Below, piece by piece: positions 46,172-51,109 of a DNA stretch of 51,109 nucleotides (position 1 is its first letter; every line of letters starts with the position of its first letter). Location of the stretch: assembly GCF_002005105.1 (NCBI RefSeq), contig NZ_MSCV01000044.1, forward strand, positions 1-51,109. Reading direction: 5' to 3'. A program made the translations under genes and the position numbers. The notes beneath the pieces are model-generated. The model saw nothing but the letters and a program-made list of their open reading frames with translations. It was not told the origin of the DNA and made no database searches. Source of the DNA: Methylocaldum sp. 14B. Lineage in GTDB: Bacteria > Pseudomonadota > Gammaproteobacteria > Methylococcales > Methylococcaceae.

Positions 46172-46181
<10 letters not shown>
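45558..46181 (+). CDS. pgsA: CDP-diacylglycerol--glycerol-3-phosphate 3-phosphatidyltransferase
   Basis: Makes phosphatidylglycerol phosphate, first step to acidic phospholipids. 207 residues, inner membrane. The CDP-alcohol transferase signature D-G-x2-A-R-x8-G-x3-D-x3-D is complete in DWLDGYLARKMSQTTRFGAF and the following LDPVADK. Several hydrophobic helices. The C-terminal hydrophilic tail (PPVIPKIPTLNS) is a little long, and its last codons overlap the first bases of the tRNA-Gly gene. The uvrC-pgsA-tRNA order matches Escherichia coli. Confidence 0.95.
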
Positions 46182-46247
<66 letters not shown>

Positions 46248-46375: not shown

Positions 46376-46470
46376 ATATTTCCGGGCCTTCCAGGGCTGC
46401 TCCTCCGTCTTCATCGGTTGTTTTGGCGAAAAGACTTTTCGCCATCACGGGCATCACCTTCTCCCCTACC
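46376..46470. other. stretch after tRNA-Cys
   Basis: No gene. A 19-base inverted repeat (46425-46443, arms ggcgaaaag and cttttcgcc with one base between) is present, without a T run. No second copy of the tRNA 3' end was found, so no attachment site is assigned. Confidence 0.5.
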
Positions 46471-46796
46471 CTAGAGCATTTTCATACCTACTGTACGGGC
46501 ACTCGCGAGTAGGTCGGGAATCCTTTCCCGACGACACGTCAGGCCGAGCGTCTTCGTCGGCAAAGGATTGCCGACCTACGACTGTAGCACCCTGTAGGTC
46601 GGGAATCCCTCCCAATCGCAAACGGCGTCTTCGGGAGCGCCGAAGCCCCCCTTCCCGACGCCACGTCCTGGCCGAGCGTCTTCGTCGGCAAAGGATTGCC
46701 GACCTACGAATGCTTGAATCCATTCACCCGAGCCGAAGGCGCCAACGACGTCCGCCAAGCCGGTTTTGCCTTACGAGCGAGATGAAAACGCCCTAG
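46471..46796. mobile_element. MITE-like element, about 325 bp
   Basis: Ends CTAGAGCATTTTCAT (from 46471) and ATGAAAACGCCCTAG (to 46796) are inverted copies with 2 mismatches in 15. Inside are two units with the GTAGGTCGG/CCGACCTAC arms also seen at 37.4 kb: A 46509-46579 and B 46594-46707. They share a 40-bp direct repeat (46542-46581 and 46670-46709). Unit B carries an extra insert holding the CCAATCGCAAACGG hairpin. The right end lies inside the last codons of the integrase remnant, so it inserted into that gene or next to it. No transposase is encoded. Confidence 0.65.
46612..46645. repeat. dispersed hairpin repeat, copy 2
   Basis: The same CCAATCGCAAACGG as at 28679, followed by a hairpin with arms cttcgg/ccgaag and the same loop GAGCG. 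It sits within unit B of the MITE-like element, so one repeat has inserted into another. Confidence 0.7.
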
Positions 46797-47236
46797 CTCG
46801 GACATAATGACGCGTCATTTTTTGCGTGGCGTGTCCCAGTAGTTTTCTGGCTTGAGACATGCTTTCAAGATCCGAAGCGGCTTTTGCACGAAGCTCCCGA
46901 AATTGAAAGCGTTCAAAGAGAACCCGAGTTCTTTCGCTTCCTTTTCCGCCTTATTTCTCGCTTTATCGAAGTGGCTTCGGAAATAGCCGAAGGGCTTTAA
47001 AAGTTGCTCTTTGGGATCGGTCAGAATCGTTAAACCGCGGCTTCCAGGCGATTTGATTCGCTCAAAGACTTCGGCCAGCTCGCCGACAAGCTCAATGCGG
47101 AGCTTGGCTTTTGTTTTCGTTGCTCTAACCAGATAGCACCCTCTCGGATCTGGTCCCATTTCAGCTTAAATGCGTCGGCTGGACGTTGGCCCGTTAAATA
47201 CGAGAGATCAAGTGCATCTTGGACAATCGGATCGGC
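46771..47236 (-). pseudogene. phage-type tyrosine integrase, frameshifted and truncated
   Basis: Only the catalytic domain remains, in three reading frames. Frame 1 (from about 47236): DALDLSYLTGQRPADAFKLK, with the box I Arg. Frame 2 (47125-46920): TKTKAKLRIELVGELAEVFE and a following AEKEAKELG. Frame 3 (46917-46771): FQFRELRAKAASD, then ARKLLGHATQKMTRHYV with the catalytic His, Arg and Tyr. The shifts lie near 47112-47130 and 46905-46930. The N-terminal arm-binding domain is missing and a stop (TAA) precedes box I. The normal C-terminal tail is replaced by the end of the MITE-like element. Remnant of a prophage or island. Confidence 0.88.
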
Positions 47237-47442
47237 ACTCTTTTAGACCAGAGCAAGGCGACGTTGACCGGGCAGTGCTTGCCGATGAGCTCGGAGGGGA
47301 TGTGGCCCCGGTCGACCCAAGCGTCGACGATGCCGATCGGGACGCCGGAGAGCTCGGCGTAGCGTTGCCGGGTGATGTAGGCGATCGGGATTTGCAGGGG
47401 CGGCACCGAGGGGGTGACTTGACCCAAACGTTCGTCTTCCAT
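47194..47442 (-). CDS. Cox/excisionase-like phage regulator, 3' end altered
   Basis: Up to 82 residues from ATG 47442 (agaggaag upstream). The part to residue 67 resembles small winged-helix or MerR-like phage regulators of the Cox/Apl type and the Pf-phage equivalents: IAYITRQRYAELSGVPIGIV, DAWVDRGHIPSELIGKHCPV and NVALLWSK. The last 15 residues (RVPIRLSKMHLISRI) read through the integrase remnant in the wrong frame, so a deletion probably joined the two near 47240. In phages such proteins repress the lysogeny promoter and help excision. Divergent from the repressor-like gene at 47555. Confidence 0.65.
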   Translation of the reverse strand: MEDERLGQVTPSVPPLQIPIAYITRQRYAELSGVPIGIVDAWVDRGHIPSELIGKHCPVNVALLWSKRVPIRLSKMHLISRI

Positions 47443-47497
47443 ACGCTTCCTCTTCAACAGTCGCTTTGTGTGACTATGTGGGCACTGCGGCCACGTG

Positions 47498-47540
47498 AGA
47501 GCAATTATTACACCCACTGAAAAAGAGCAATAATTGCTCT
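47498..47540. promoter_or_regulatory. probable phage repressor operator pair
   Basis: Between the divergent Cox-like and repressor-like genes. Site 2 is a perfect palindrome around one base, AGAGCAATAATTGCTCT (47524-47540). Site 1 (47498-47510) repeats its left half, AGAGCAATTATTA. The two left half-sites are 26 bp apart, about two and a half helical turns. This is the layout of immunity regions of temperate phages. Which of the two proteins binds is inference. Confidence 0.65.
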
Positions 47541-47554
47541 CTCAGGATGTTTTA

Positions 47555-47821
47555 TTGAATACGCACGAACGGTTAATTCGGCTTATGGATCATAAAAAGA
47601 CCGGCCCCCAGGAACTGGCCCGGTTGACCGAAATACCAGTTGATAGATGGAAAAACATAAGATGCGGTAGAGTACGCGCCAGTACGGAAGAGCTCGACGC
47701 GTGCACTGCCTTATGGTCTGAGTACGCGTACTGGCTAATAACCGGAAACACACTGCCCGAAGCCGGACAGATCAGTCCCGAGATCGAGGAAACCAGAAAA
47801 AATCTAAACGCGGCTGGCTGA
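47555..47821 (+). CDS. phage repressor-like helix-turn-helix protein
   Basis: 88 residues from TTG 47555. NTHERLIRLMDHKKTGPQEL and ARLTEIPVDRWKNIRCGRVR resemble a helix-turn-helix; the C-terminal YAYWLITGNTLPEAGQISPE is a recognisable tail of small proteins next to Cox-like genes in temperate and Pf-type phages. I prefer TTG 47555 (agga 8 bases upstream) over TTG 47534, which lies inside the operator palindrome. It looks intact and may still repress the divergent promoter. Divergent from the Cox-like gene, upstream of the DUF262 gene on the same strand. Confidence 0.7.
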   Translation: MNTHERLIRLMDHKKTGPQELARLTEIPVDRWKNIRCGRVRASTEELDACTALWSEYAYWLITGNTLPEAGQISPEIEETRKNLNAAG

Positions 47822-48054
47822 CCACCTCCAGGGTTTCCGAGCGCTGGAAACCTTCGCCCAGCCGAGACTACGGGGGAAGACGCTTAGCGTTCGAAAAGAA
47901 GATAGGGAAACAATAAAGGGAGATTAAACCGTACCAGACGTGCTAACTAAATGAAAAAAGCACTTCCGAACTTTAACTGCACCTTACCGCCAACTCGCTT
48001 ATACACGCACTCAGCCCCGGCATTCTCCATTAGCGTTATTCAATAAAATATCTT

Positions 48055-49623
48055 ATGGATCAATTAACAATAAGAGAAATTCTAGATACTGTAATCCGCG
48101 GACAGATTCGGATTCCTGCCTTCCAGCGCGGCTTCGTCTGGGAGCCAGACAGAGTCGCCTATTTAATGGATAGCATATACAAAGGTTTCCCATTTGGCTC
48201 TTTGCTATTCTGGCGAACCAAGGAAAAACTAAAAACAGAACGAGATCTTGGCCCGTTTAAGCTCCCTCCCCCGACAGAAGATTACCCTGTCGATTACGTC
48301 CTCGATGGGCAACAGCGAATCACGTCTATCTTCGGCGTTTTTCAAACCGAACTTCCAATTGACCAATCTGAACAGTGGCAAGATATTTATTTCGATTTTC
48401 TCGCGGATACTAATGCACAGGATCCACAGTTTTTCGCCTTAAGACCCGAAGAGGTCGATCTCGAGCGCCACTTTCCATTAAAGACCCTCTTCGATACCAC
48501 CGCTTATAGAAAAGCTACCGCGAGCTTTGACGAAATAGTCGCCAAGAAGATTGATGATATGCAGTCGGTATATAAAGAAGTACGCATTCCTGTCCAGATG
48601 TTCAGAACGGAGGATCGAGCAACTGTTTCGATTATATTTGAGCGAGTTAACCGCCAAGGGGTACCGCTCGATACTCTTCAACTGCTCTCAGCGTGGACAT
48701 GGAGCGAGGAATTTCAATTACAAAGCCAATTCGCGGATCTGGAAGAACAGCTGGAACCATTTGGATTCCGGGAACTCGGGACAGATTCAAATCTTCTCCT
48801 CAGATGTTGTTCTGCAATTCTCGGTGGCGATGCCTCACCGGAGGCATTAATGGCGCTAAATGGCGCCATGGTACGAGAAAGATTTCAAGAAGTATTAAAT
48901 GGGGTACGAGGTGCAGTCGATTATATCCGTACAAATTACAAAGCATACTCCCTAGCTAATCTGCCGTTCTCGACAATTCTCGTACCGCTTTCAGTTTTCT
49001 TTGCTGTACCAGAAAATTGTGAAATAAAATATACGGATGACCAGAGAAAAATAATTGATCGCTGGTTCTGGCGATCATGTTTTGGACGCCGATACAGTAG
49101 TGGTGTACTAAGAAACCTGAAAACCGATATAGAAGAGATCTTAAAATTACGCTTAGGAAAACCTTCAGCACTTGGAGGCTTCCCAGTGACAATTTCGGAT
49201 TCATTTTTTGTCGAAAACGTCTTCACGATGGGTGCGGTTAATACGAGCACATTTATTTTGCTCTTAGCGCAGCGTCTTCCATTAAGCTTTATATCTGGCG
49301 CCCCCATAGACTTGGGAGATAAGCTCCGCCAAAGCAACAGAGCCGAGTTCCATCACCTAATGCCGAAAGCGTTTCTGCAAAGTACCGAGCAAACGAACAT
49401 AAGTCCTAATTGCCTTGCAAACTTTGCCTTTATTTCTCGTGCTGATAACAGAGAGCTTGGAGGTGTAGCGCCGAGCATCTACCGATCAAAGATGCCCAAC
49501 GATATCAGCGAAATTCTTGAGCGATCAATAATTCCAGGCGAGCTATTCGAGAACAATTACCCTAATTTCCTCGAAAAGCGTGCCTATTTGCTTCGAGAAT
49601 TCGCTGAAGGGCTGTGTCAATAA
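48055..49623 (+). CDS. DUF262/HNH protein, GmrSD-type restriction enzyme relative
   Basis: 522 residues. The N-terminal DUF262 (ParB-like) domain is clear: ILDTVIRGQIRIPAFQRGFV, RVAYLMDSIYKGFPFGSLLF and the nucleotide-site DGQQR (84-88). The C-terminal part (about 425-490) has an HNH-like nuclease pattern, EFHHLMPKAFL (His433, His434) and NCLANFAFISRADNRELGG. GmrSD-family enzymes cut modified phage DNA using NTP; here S-like and D-like parts appear in one chain. The sequence is AT-richer than neighbours, and it sits in a phage-derived island, both suggesting transfer. No methylase or partner gene is beside it. Ribosome site is poor; the start is the first ATG fitting the family. Confidence 0.85.
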   Translation: MDQLTIREILDTVIRGQIRIPAFQRGFVWEPDRVAYLMDSIYKGFPFGSLLFWRTKEKLKTERDLGPFKLPPPTEDYPVDYVLDGQQRITSIFGVFQTELPIDQSEQWQDIYFDFLADTNAQDPQFFALRPEEVDLERHFPLKTLFDTTAYRKATASFDEIVAKKIDDMQSVYKEVRIPVQMFRTEDRATVSIIFERVNRQGVPLDTLQLLSAWTWSEEFQLQSQFADLEEQLEPFGFRELGTDSNLLLRCCSAILGGDASPEALMALNGAMVRERFQEVLNGVRGAVDYIRTNYKAYSLANLPFSTILVPLSVFFAVPENCEIKYTDDQRKIIDRWFWRSCFGRRYSSGVLRNLKTDIEEILKLRLGKPSALGGFPVTISDSFFVENVFTMGAVNTSTFILLLAQRLPLSFISGAPIDLGDKLRQSNRAEFHHLMPKAFLQSTEQTNISPNCLANFAFISRADNRELGGVAPSIYRSKMPNDISEILERSIIPGELFENNYPNFLEKRAYLLREFAEGLCQ

Positions 49624-49645
49624 CTATTCAGAAATGGGCAACGTA

Positions 49646-49777
49646 TCAGGCTTTTCTTGTTTGACTACGTAAACAGAGTCGAATCCTACTTTCACGCATC
49701 CACCCTAACTAGCGCTCCACCCAATCTGCGAAAGGTGCGAAAGGTGCGAAAGGTGTCAGGCTTTGGTTGTTTGACTA
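49646..49777. repeat. 110-bp-spaced direct repeats and 9-bp tandem repeat
   Basis: A 22-base sequence starting TCAGGCTTT and ending TTGTTTGACTA occurs at 49646-49667 and 49756-49777, with 2 mismatches. Directly before the second copy GCGAAAGGT is repeated three times (49728-49754). Function unknown. Confidence 0.8.
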
Positions 49778-49789
49778 ACGCCCGATGGT

Positions 49790-50089
49790 TCAGAGCGTAC
49801 GTTTCCGGCCGAGCTTCATGTCGTCCAGCAACCGCTCATTAACACTTCGCGCGTGCTCGATGTCCCAAATCCGAATCGCTTCTTTGAGTTCGACCTTGCC
49901 GTCGTCGACTATTTTGCAAAGTCCAACTCGTAGAGCAAACAGCTTGAAGATGAGCGGATCTTTGCGCGTGTCGGCCAGGTGCTTTTCCGACTCCGCCGAC
50001 TTTTGCGGATCTTTGCAGTAGTTGACCCAGCCTTCTTCGGCCCGGAGGCCGAAGGATACGGCCAGCATCAAAATCAAAAGCGCTTTCAT
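49790..50089 (-). CDS. small exported protein of unknown function
   Basis: 99 residues. Residues 1-17 form a signal peptide (MKALLILMLAVSFGLRA). The mature part is charged and has two Cys (VNYCKDP and GLCKIVDD), possibly a periplasmic disulfide, and the segment IRIWDIEHARSVNERLLDDM. I do not recognise a family. It lies between the DUF262 gene and the leucine-rich-repeat gene; a terminator for leftward transcription precedes it, so it must have its own promoter. Confidence 0.6.
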   Translation of the reverse strand: MKALLILMLAVSFGLRAEEGWVNYCKDPQKSAESEKHLADTRKDPLIFKLFALRVGLCKIVDDGKVELKEAIRIWDIEHARSVNERLLDDMKLGRKRTL

Positions 50090-50121
50090 TCGTCGATCGC
50101 CAAATCAGCTCCCGCTTTTAC

Positions 50122-50155
50122 AATAAAAAACCCGGCCGCGGGGTGCCGGCCGGGT
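50122..50155 (-). terminator. intrinsic terminator, leftward
   Basis: Nine-bp GC-rich stem (arms 50130-50138 and 50147-50155, 8-base loop) followed, on the minus strand, by TTTTTATTG. A textbook rho-independent terminator. It would stop transcription coming from the leucine-rich-repeat gene. Confidence 0.85.
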
Positions 50156-50297
50156 ATCTAGCATGCTGCGAACTACAAGACTCGCTCGCTATTGCATCGC
50201 TTTCTGCCTCACCGCACTGGTGCTTACATGATGGCTCTCAAGATATATCCATGGCTGAATCAGAGTGGCAGAGAGCTCTATCATCAACGTATCCAGA

Positions 50298-51109
50298 TTA
50301 TTGGCATATTGTCGGACGCTGAATAAGGGTGGAGGGAAGAGCCGCCACCAGCATATCCAGATCATTGCATCCGATCTGGTCGTTGCTGACGAGATTTAAG
50401 TACCCCAAAGCGTGCAGTTGAGTGAGTGGCCAGACGTCCACTAGAGCATTGCTCGACAGATCCAGTTCTTTGAGTTGGCTGAAGTTTGGGCCATTCGGGC
50501 CTGGGCTCGCGAAGACCTGAATATTGTCGATGCCGTTGCCCGCGACGTTGAGCCGGGTCAGCGTGCTGCCAAACGGCATGAGGAAGTCGAGGCTCTTGCC
50601 GCCGTTGGAATCGGTGAGATGGGTATTGCCCAGATCCAATTCCACCAGAGGGTAAGGCTTACCGGTCTCCCAATTCGTTAGCGGCCCGAGGTTGCTGAAC
50701 GAGCCGATCTCGATACCGTTAAGCCCCAGGCTGGTCAGCCCCCGGTTCATGTCGATCACGGGACGTACTTGCCAGATGGCAAGGCTTTGGTTGCCGGAGA
50801 GATTGAGCTTGGTCAGTTGATGCAGCGGACTAAGCGGCCAGACGTCCATCAGGGCGTTTTTCGATAGGTCCAGCTCTTTGAGTTGGCTGAAGTTTGGACC
50901 GTTCGATCCCCAACTCGCAAAAACCTGAATGTTATCGATATCGTTGCCCGCGACGTTAAGCCGAGTCAGCGTGCCACCAAACGGCATGAGAAAGTCGAGA
51001 CTCTTGCCGCCATTGAGGTCGGTCAGGTGAGTGTTACCCAAGTCCAGTTCCTGTAAAGCATAAGGCTGTCCAGTCTCCCAGTTGGTCAGCGGTCCGAGGT
51101 TATCGAATG
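50298..51109 (-). CDS. leucine-rich-repeat protein, C-terminal part (runs off the window)
   Basis: At least 270 residues are visible; the frame is open to the right edge, so the N-terminus is outside. Leucine-rich repeats of the type LKELDLSKNALMDV, LTKLNLSGNQSLA and LTRLNVAGNDIDN recur. A larger unit of 136 residues (408 bp) is repeated: ELDLGNTHLTD, the LDFLMPFG segment and NIQVFAS occur in both units with few changes. The end is capped by DMLVAALPSTLIQRPTICQ with Cys pair. Such proteins are usually secreted or cell-surface and bind other proteins. No signal peptide can be checked. Function unknown. Confidence 0.8.
   Translation of the reverse strand, partial: FDNLGPLTNWETGQPYALQELDLGNTHLTDLNGGKSLDFLMPFGGTLTRLNVAGNDIDNIQVFASWGSNGPNFSQLKELDLSKNALMDVWPLSPLHQLTKLNLSGNQSLAIWQVRPVIDMNRGLTSLGLNGIEIGSFSNLGPLTNWETGKPYPLVELDLGNTHLTDSNGGKSLDFLMPFGSTLTRLNVAGNGIDNIQVFASPGPNGPNFSQLKELDLSSNALVDVWPLTQLHALGYLNLVSNDQIGCNDLDMLVAALPSTLIQRPTICQ

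What the first reader, a model, noticed from the sequence alone, without database searches (positions are those of the whole stretch)
46376..49623. Phage-derived island beside the tRNA-Gly/tRNA-Cys cluster carrying a DUF262/HNH gene
In Escherichia coli the order is uvrC-pgsA-glyW-cysT-leuZ. Here leuZ is missing and after cysT come repeats, a broken integrase, a Cox-like gene, a repressor-like gene and then a lone DUF262/HNH gene of AT-richer sequence. Seen in sequence: order, frameshifts, composition. Inferred: the island came with a phage that used this tRNA region and the defence-type gene is its useful remainder.
Basis: partly seen in the sequence, partly recalled or inferred. Interest (0 to 1): 0.75.

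Follow-up and report, generated by a model that had tools for sequence, protein, structure and literature searches.

The report
Decayed filamentous-phage relic with nuclease gene
Beside two tRNA genes of what is probably a methane-eating bacterium lie the leftovers of at least one old virus, mainly the on/off switch of a filamentous phage, followed by one intact gene for a nuclease of the kind that cuts foreign DNA; the parts are familiar, the combination is a small new example.

Summary
After tRNA-Gly/tRNA-Cys come host REP-like repeats, the frameshifted second half of a tailed-phage (F10-type) integrase, an excisionase clipped at its C-terminus, an intact repressor and an intact, AT-richer DUF262/HNH gene. 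(1) The excisionase/repressor pair is the Xis | repressor C switch of Pf-type filamentous phages (Inoviridae), not P2 Cox. Pf-like inoviruses with the same divergent pair occur in related genomes; some carry toxin-antitoxin, PLD-like or defence genes right of repressor C, where the window has DUF262. (2) 'leuZ missing' means little: no tRNA-Leu(UAA) was found after pgsA in 45 relatives examined, and this genome carries it on another contig. (3) The slot after cysT is a real insertion site: an integrase or remnant, of three kinds, follows cysT in 6 of 18 genomes with enough sequence. (4) No attachment-site duplication was found. (5) The nuclease (522 aa) keeps DGQQR and HNH-like residues in all 49 aligned relatives, resembles BrxU/GmrSD, and is a solitary, widely transferred gene. 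Most likely: a decayed mosaic phage relic whose cargo, a type IV-like defence nuclease, is still intact. New member of a known kind.

The parts
46172..46247 (+). tRNA-Gly(GCC), intact
   Evidence: ARAGORN; Rfam RF00005
46302..46375 (+). tRNA-Cys(GCA), intact; candidate attachment gene, unproven
   Evidence: no duplicated 3' end found downstream
46509..46712 (.). host dispersed REP-like repeats (three copies of a 26-nt unit, two orientations); not part of the phage
   Evidence: 78 matches in the genome
46780..46914 (-). integrase remnant, piece C (catalytic C-terminal end)
   Evidence: PF00589 0.0047; 65% over 37 aa to the integrase of OQ658367, 57% to that of F10
46920..47099 (-). integrase remnant, piece B (other frame)
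   Evidence: E 0.001 to F10 integrase aa 240-292; no Pfam or PHROG integrase hit
47091..47242 (-). integrase remnant, piece A (first catalytic arginine box); N-terminal half of the integrase absent
   Evidence: PF00589 6e-4, phrog_7244 5.9e-6, OQ658367 integrase aa 193-215, E 1.5e-8
47242..47442 (-). Pf-type excisionase (Xis), last roughly 8-10 residues lost where the integrase remnant joins at about 47242; the ORF reads on to 47194
   Evidence: phrog_1864 1.1e-10, the family of PfAC08 Xis; PfAC08 Xis against the window E 1.4e-7; alignment
47524..47540 (.). 17-nt palindrome AGAGCAATAATTGCTCT between the divergent genes, candidate operator
   Evidence: function inferred
47534..47821 (+). Pf-type repressor C, intact; likely true start TTG 47555 (aligns with the start of the G034 homologue, inferred)
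   Evidence: phrog_147 1.8e-19; matches in 22 phage records, 21 Pseudomonas phages and Pf1; 73% to G034
48055..49623 (+). DUF262/HNH nuclease gene, 522 aa, intact
   Evidence: PF03235 1.9e-29; PADLOC PDC-M55C 1.8e-51; DGQQR and HH/N/N invariant in 49 of 49; BrxU profile and fold match

Best explanation
Shown: an insertion slot directly downstream of tRNA-Cys holds a decayed phage mosaic. Its left part is the 3' half of an F10-type (tailed-phage) tyrosine integrase broken by two frame changes; its right part is the divergent Xis | repressor C switch of a Pf-type filamentous phage, with Xis clipped where the integrase remnant begins and repressor C intact. Right of repressor C, in its orientation and in the position where such phages keep cargo, stands an intact DUF262/HNH gene. 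Inferred: one or more deletions removed replication, coat and morphogenesis genes and the integrase N-terminus, so the element can no longer excise or make particles. The DUF262/HNH protein most likely works as a single-chain, modification-dependent (type IV-like) nuclease: the DUF262 domain binds and hydrolyses an NTP through DGQQR and senses a DNA feature, and the C-terminal HNH-like domain cuts or nicks incoming DNA. It was probably brought in as phage cargo, and is kept, or not yet lost, because it protects the cell.
For: Repressor C matches 22 phage records, 21 Pseudomonas phages and Primolicivirus Pf1, and falls in the PHROG of the PfAC08 repressor. Xis hits phrog_1864, the PfAC08 Xis family; F10 Xis falls in phrog_4764 instead. 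Among 37 loci chosen because they hold repressor C (30 genome stretches, PfAC08 itself, 6 IMG/VR contigs), 33 have a Xis hit divergently beside it and 23 have integrase, replication or coat/morphogenesis hits on the Xis side. Of the PfAC08 markers only Xis and repressor C hit the window at E below 0.01. Cargo right of repressor C: IetAS defence genes in PfAC08, HicAB and a PLD-like gene in IMG/VR relatives. Integrase pieces in order along aa 193-339 of F10-type integrases. Integrase or remnant after cysT in 6 of 18 genomes (five integrase queries). No neighbour family recurs in more than 4 of 85 DUF262 loci; one such family, in four loci, is a phage portal gene (Pfam confirmed in the two tested), and P2-like phages keep defence genes beside their portal gene (PMC9122126, passages). 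BrxU is the best profile and fold match (E 1.5e-22, 6.9e-15).
Against: None of the 91 DUF262 loci from collection scans has repressor C in its stored flanks, so the nuclease-inovirus link rests on this one locus. The integrase is not of the inovirus type. No att repeat. Pfam DUF1524/HNH is not detected, so the nuclease half rests on a motif and the model. TM-scores to BrxU are only 0.42/0.38 with large rmsd. In the part of the list shown, defence families hit the nearest neighbours of DUF262 relatives in one member each. dS to relatives is saturated, so present selection on the gene is not measured. No promoter-like site just upstream of the gene in a simple scan. No activity was tested.
Confidence: 0.62

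Rival explanations
1. The DUF262 gene is not phage cargo: it entered the cysT slot on its own or with another element, next to an unrelated inovirus relic.
For: No repressor C near any of 91 relatives; nearest neighbours of relatives are varied, no Pfam family in more than 2 of 147 scanned; its G+C (45%) is lower than repressor C (51%) and the Xis/integrase stretch (54%).
Against: Same strand and directly right of repressor C, the place where PfAC08 and inoviruses of this order carry other genes; no second element boundary seen.
Confidence: 0.33
2. The relic is one inovirus that had acquired an F10-type integrase, then lost its core by a single deletion joining integrase to Xis, rather than remnants of two phages.
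For: Integrase and Xis have the strand order of Pf phages (int and xis on one strand, repressor opposite); the junction is sharp at about 47242; Pf phages carry five integrase types tied to their sites (PMC7549136, passages).
Against: In the 37 inovirus loci the two typed integrase pieces found no convincing match (best E 0.007, to an integrase-like stretch in L225); several of those stretches end before their integrase, so the test is weak.
Confidence: 0.4
3. A single tailed (P2- or lambda-like) prophage remnant, as the first reader's Cox-like wording suggests.
For: The integrase is of tailed-phage type; phrog_575 'Cox-like excisionase and repressor' is a weaker hit of the Xis ORF (7e-6).
Against: Xis and repressor both belong to Pf inovirus families; F10 Xis is another family and does not align with the window's (E 2).
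Confidence: 0.07
4. The DUF262/HNH protein is not a defence nuclease but has some other DNA-related or regulatory role.
For: Solitary gene with no conserved partners and mostly non-defence neighbours; no experiment.
Against: DGQQR and HH/N/N invariant in 49 of 49 relatives; closest solved structures are BrxU, DndI and SspE, all phage-defence nucleases; four relatives beside a phage portal gene.
Confidence: 0.2

Closest known systems
Pf-type filamentous phages (Inoviridae; Pf4, Pf5, PfAC08)
   Same: Divergent Xis and repressor C of the same PHROG families; accessory genes, defence included, right of repressor C in PfAC08.
   Different: No replication, coat or morphogenesis hits in the window; integrase of another type; another host group.
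GmrSD / BrxU type IV restriction enzymes
   Same: DUF262 domain with DGQQR, C-terminal HNH-like motif, single chain, scattered distribution; BrxU is the best profile and fold match.
   Different: Pfam DUF1524 not detected; 522 aa against 587 in BrxU; 17-18% identity in the fold alignments; specificity unknown.
SspE and DndI phosphorothioate-sensing nucleases
   Same: DUF262 plus nuclease; weak fold matches (E 4e-3 and 5e-4).
   Different: I recognise no ssp or dnd genes among the window's listed ORFs (read by eye, no profile search of all ORFs).
PADLOC candidate PDC-M55C
   Same: Best defence-profile match, 1.8e-51 over residues 6-445.
   Different: By recall the M-series are multi-gene candidates; here the gene is alone.
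P2-like prophage defence hotspot (between gpA and portal gpQ)
   Same: Four relatives of the nuclease lie beside a portal gene of one family, P2-type by recall; same idea of one swappable cargo position.
   Different: The window locus is not P2-like.

Membership tests
Pf-type inovirus (prophage) | Divergent Xis | repressor C switch of the Pf families | tested here: met
Pf-type inovirus (prophage) | Replication initiator, Zot-like morphogenesis and coat genes | tested here: not met
   PfAC08 versions give no hit in the window below E 0.1; hence a relic, not a prophage. The contig ends at 51109.
Pf-type inovirus (prophage) | Pf-type integrase | tested here: not met
   PfAC08 integrase: no hit below E 5; the pieces match F10-type integrases
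tRNA-targeted integrative element | Integrase next to the tRNA 3' end | tested here: met
   46780-47242 after tRNA-Cys, a remnant only
tRNA-targeted integrative element | Direct repeat of the tRNA 3' end at the far boundary | tested here: not met
   Best local alignments of tRNA-Gly/Cys to 46376-51109 no better than shuffles
tRNA-targeted integrative element | Variable content at the site among relatives | tested here: met
   6 of 18 genomes with an integrase or remnant after cysT; no nucleotide match window-G001 or window-G003
GmrSD type IV restriction enzymes | DUF262 (PF03235) domain with DGQQR motif | tested here: met
   103.7 bits, cut-off 33.2; DGQQR 49 of 49
GmrSD type IV restriction enzymes | DUF1524 (PF07510) domain | tested here: not met
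   No hit up to E 1; a related H433-H434...N456...N465 pattern is present in 49 of 49
GmrSD type IV restriction enzymes | Cleavage of modified (e.g. glucosylated) DNA, NTP-stimulated | not testable with these tools
   needs biochemistry
SspE | Association with sspABCD phosphorothioation genes | tested here: inconclusive
   None recognised by eye among the ORF lists; only 5 island proteins were scanned against PADLOC and the contig ends at 51109

The most novel reading that the evidence does not exclude
The surviving inovirus switch has been kept as the control device of the nuclease: the intact repressor C, its palindromic candidate operator and the clipped Xis form a domesticated sensor that sets DUF262/HNH expression and could respond to Xis from an incoming filamentous phage. 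A second Xis | repressor C pair found in all four genomes of this genus that are held, with no phage core hits around it, would be a parallel case.
Probability: 0.1. Interest if true: 0.62.

Novelty: new member of a known kind. Interest (0 to 1): 0.36.

Why it matters
It extends the known pattern 'filamentous phages carry swappable cargo next to their repressor, sometimes for defence' from Pseudomonas to another order (probably Methylococcales, methane-oxidising bacteria), where relatives of the repressor occur in 32 of 251 genomes searched. It also marks the DNA after tRNA-Cys as an insertion site worth scanning, and points to a compact, solitary DUF262/HNH family spread over many phyla that I did not find characterised in the listings of my five paper searches.

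Tried and rejected
Att site: tRNA-Gly and tRNA-Cys, whole and 3' 40 nt, both strands, against 46376-51109: nothing above shuffles. P2 Cox reading: rejected by PHROG and alignment. Pf integrase: no match in the window. Search for the ORF 46815-47159 of the integrase remnant in 251 genomes of the order: only the window itself. Search for F10-type integrases in 251 genomes: 79 genomes have hits at 1e-8, one of them the window's own remnant; best 47% identity, most far lower; not followed further. Empty site: could not be defined; the proteins right of the island found no match in the relatives' stretches after pgsA and the contig ends at 51109. DUF262 in viral contigs with the single protein: none; with the alignment: 11. 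Conserved neighbours of DUF262: none in more than 4 of 85 loci (82 of the 91 scan loci, 9 partial matches left out, plus 3 plasmid loci). Nearest neighbours: 147 of 161 chosen ones scanned (only the first 25 families are shown there). dN/dS: dS saturated, uninformative. Species name: G003 (6,088,916 bases, one contig) and G001 (a 4,869,648-base contig plus one more) fit the published sizes of Methylocaldum marinum S8 and M. szegediense Norfolk (PMC10974252, passages), so the window is probably Methylocaldum; inferred, not shown. Literature: in the listings (25 of 38; 20 of 161; 15 of 1,222; 8 of 1,471; 12 of 52) I saw no title on inoviruses of Methylocaldum; the first row (PMC13059738, phages of a patescibacterium and its methylotrophic gammaproteobacterial host) was not read. 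'PDC-M55' had no occurrence in the 25 rows. Papers were seen as passages and one short section.
Full report
What is there. The window is one whole contig (G000:C44, 51,109 bases) of a 5.6 Mb genome whose same-genus relatives fit Methylocaldum by size (inferred). uvrC and pgsA (names recalled, not searched) are followed by intact tRNA-Gly(GCC) and tRNA-Cys(GCA). Then come three copies of a 26-nt REP-like unit (46509-46712); its pattern occurs 78 times in the genome, so it is host furniture. Three stretches on the minus strand, 46780-46914, 46920-47099 and 47091-47242, are the second half of a tyrosine integrase in shifted frames: the outer two hit Phage_integrase at its two catalytic ends, each below Pfam's cut-off, and all three align in order to residues 193-339 of F10-type integrases of Pseudomonas phages, the outer two well (E 1.5e-8 and 4e-15), the middle one only weakly (E 0.001). 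F10 is a tailed phage. The N-terminal half is gone.

The switch. The divergent repressor is full-length and belongs to the Pf repressor C family: 22 phage records match, 21 Pseudomonas phages and Pf1. A 17-nt palindrome lies between the two genes. Of nine PfAC08 marker proteins run against the window, only Xis (1.4e-7) and repressor C (1e-17) hit at E below 0.1. In Pf4 this pair is the lysis-lysogeny switch (PMC7379572, summary and passages).

Intact relatives. Repressor C relatives occur in 32 of 251 genomes of the order, the window's included. I fetched 30 stretches around listed hits (46 places are listed) and compared them with PfAC08 and six IMG/VR contigs. These 37 loci all hold repressor C because they were chosen for it; 33 of 37 have a Xis hit divergently beside it and 4 have none; 23 of 37 show integrase, replication initiator, Zot-like or coat hits on the Xis side (PfAC08 supplied the queries, and stretches are cut). 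In G006 such an element lies between a tRNA-Leu(UAA) gene and a second, partial copy of it, a textbook insertion. Right of repressor C such elements can carry other genes: IetAS in PfAC08, HicAB and a PLD-like gene in IMG/VR relatives; in G034, whose repressor is 73% identical, two ORFs there gave no PADLOC hit and the larger no Pfam hit. In the window that position holds the DUF262 gene.

The slot. pgsA was found in 60 of 61 genomes, the window's included. I examined 47 loci of 45 relatives (14 others with a match were left out): tRNA-Cys was found downstream in 19, tRNA-Leu(UAA) in none (some loci are only a few hundred bases long). In the window's genome tRNA-Leu(UAA) lies on contig C1 near tRNA-Ser(UGA). 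So leuZ was not lost to a phage here. With the window, 20 genomes have cysT here and 18 of them at least 700 nt behind it; with five integrase queries an integrase or remnant is found there in 6 of 18: the window (F10-type), G001, G003 and G019 (one shared type), G009 and G033 (P4-like by recall); integrases of other types would be missed. The G001/G003/G019 type was called an integrase on a 30% match to an annotated site-specific integrase (E 7e-6); Pfam and PHROGs did not recognise it. No repeat of a tRNA end was found on the right, so the attachment site of the window's element is unproven. The right end lies at or before about 49750, where similarity to a repeated lipoprotein-like/LRR gene family begins. 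Of 8 slot proteins from 6 relatives one has a strong PADLOC hit (PDC-S08, G015), one from G003 a subtilase hit, one from G007 weak hits, and five none.

The nuclease. The gene (522 aa, G+C 45%) has a strong DUF262 match and no DUF1524 match. Its best defence model is PDC-M55C. It has no match at E 1e-20 in the other three genomes of its genus; 5 of the other 37 genomes of the family hold only remote DUF262 proteins of 26-30% identity. Relatives of 31-74% identity (best 80 of 89 hits) come, by their titles, from Proteobacteria, Acidobacteria, Actinobacteria, Cyanobacteria, Firmicutes, Bacteroidetes and an archaeon; 53 plasmid records match, 23 of them over at least 80%, and 11 viral contigs. 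In 85 loci no neighbour family recurs in more than 4; the nearest neighbours are varied (147 of 161 scanned). Four viral loci have a portal gene of one family nearby (Pfam Phage_portal in the two tested). Across 49 aligned sequences DGQQR and H433, H434, N456, N465 are invariant. The model (mean pLDDT 87, pTM 0.66) finds BrxU first (E 6.9e-15, TM 0.42), then DndI and SspE; profile search also gives BrxU (E 1.5e-22). GmrSD-family motifs and their roles are from PMC4619093 and PMC10952713 (passages).

Mechanism. By analogy with BrxU, GmrSD and SspE, the DUF262 half likely binds an NTP and senses a DNA modification or state and the HNH-like half cuts. This is inference from motif and fold; nothing was measured. 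I do not file it as a GmrSD member because DUF1524 was tested and not found, but it probably works like one.

Verdict. The phage part is a mosaic with an inovirus switch, the leuZ clue is void, and the site is a genuine but modest insertion slot. Interest is moderate: a new member of a known kind.

Noticed in passing
L229 (G000:C14), L230 (G003), L231 (G001), L232 (G002): A second Xis | repressor C pair in all four held genomes of the genus: Xis nearly identical over about 60 residues (its C-terminus differs in G003), repressor similar, with no PfAC08-type integrase, replication, Zot-like or coat hit in the 18-19 kb stretches: possibly a domesticated phage switch.
   Followed up: partly
window 47546-47561 and 48037-48052: A 16-nt inverted repeat (15 of 16) flanks repressor C, its right arm just upstream of the DUF262 start. 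Such pairs average 0.04 per shuffled region; the real region counts 8, not examined one by one, and the REP repeats contribute.
   Followed up: partly
L236 (G006:C1:607500-626500): Pf-like inovirus beside tRNA-Leu(UAA) with a partial second copy of that tRNA at its far end.
   Followed up: partly
window 49790-51109: A small secreted-type protein gene and a leucine-rich-repeat gene at the contig edge have further copies elsewhere in the genome (small gene: C37, C66, C42; LRR: C66); 281-nt direct repeats inside the LRR gene.
   Followed up: partly
L042 (G010): tRNA-Gly is duplicated: pgsA, tRNA-Gly, tRNA-Cys, tRNA-Gly.
   Followed up: no
L169, L172, L173, L174: Relatives of the DUF262 nuclease lie near portal genes of one family in viral contigs, P2-type by recall.
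   Followed up: partly
window 46509-46712: REP-like 26-nt repeat, 78 pattern matches genome-wide, some in close inverted pairs.
   Followed up: no
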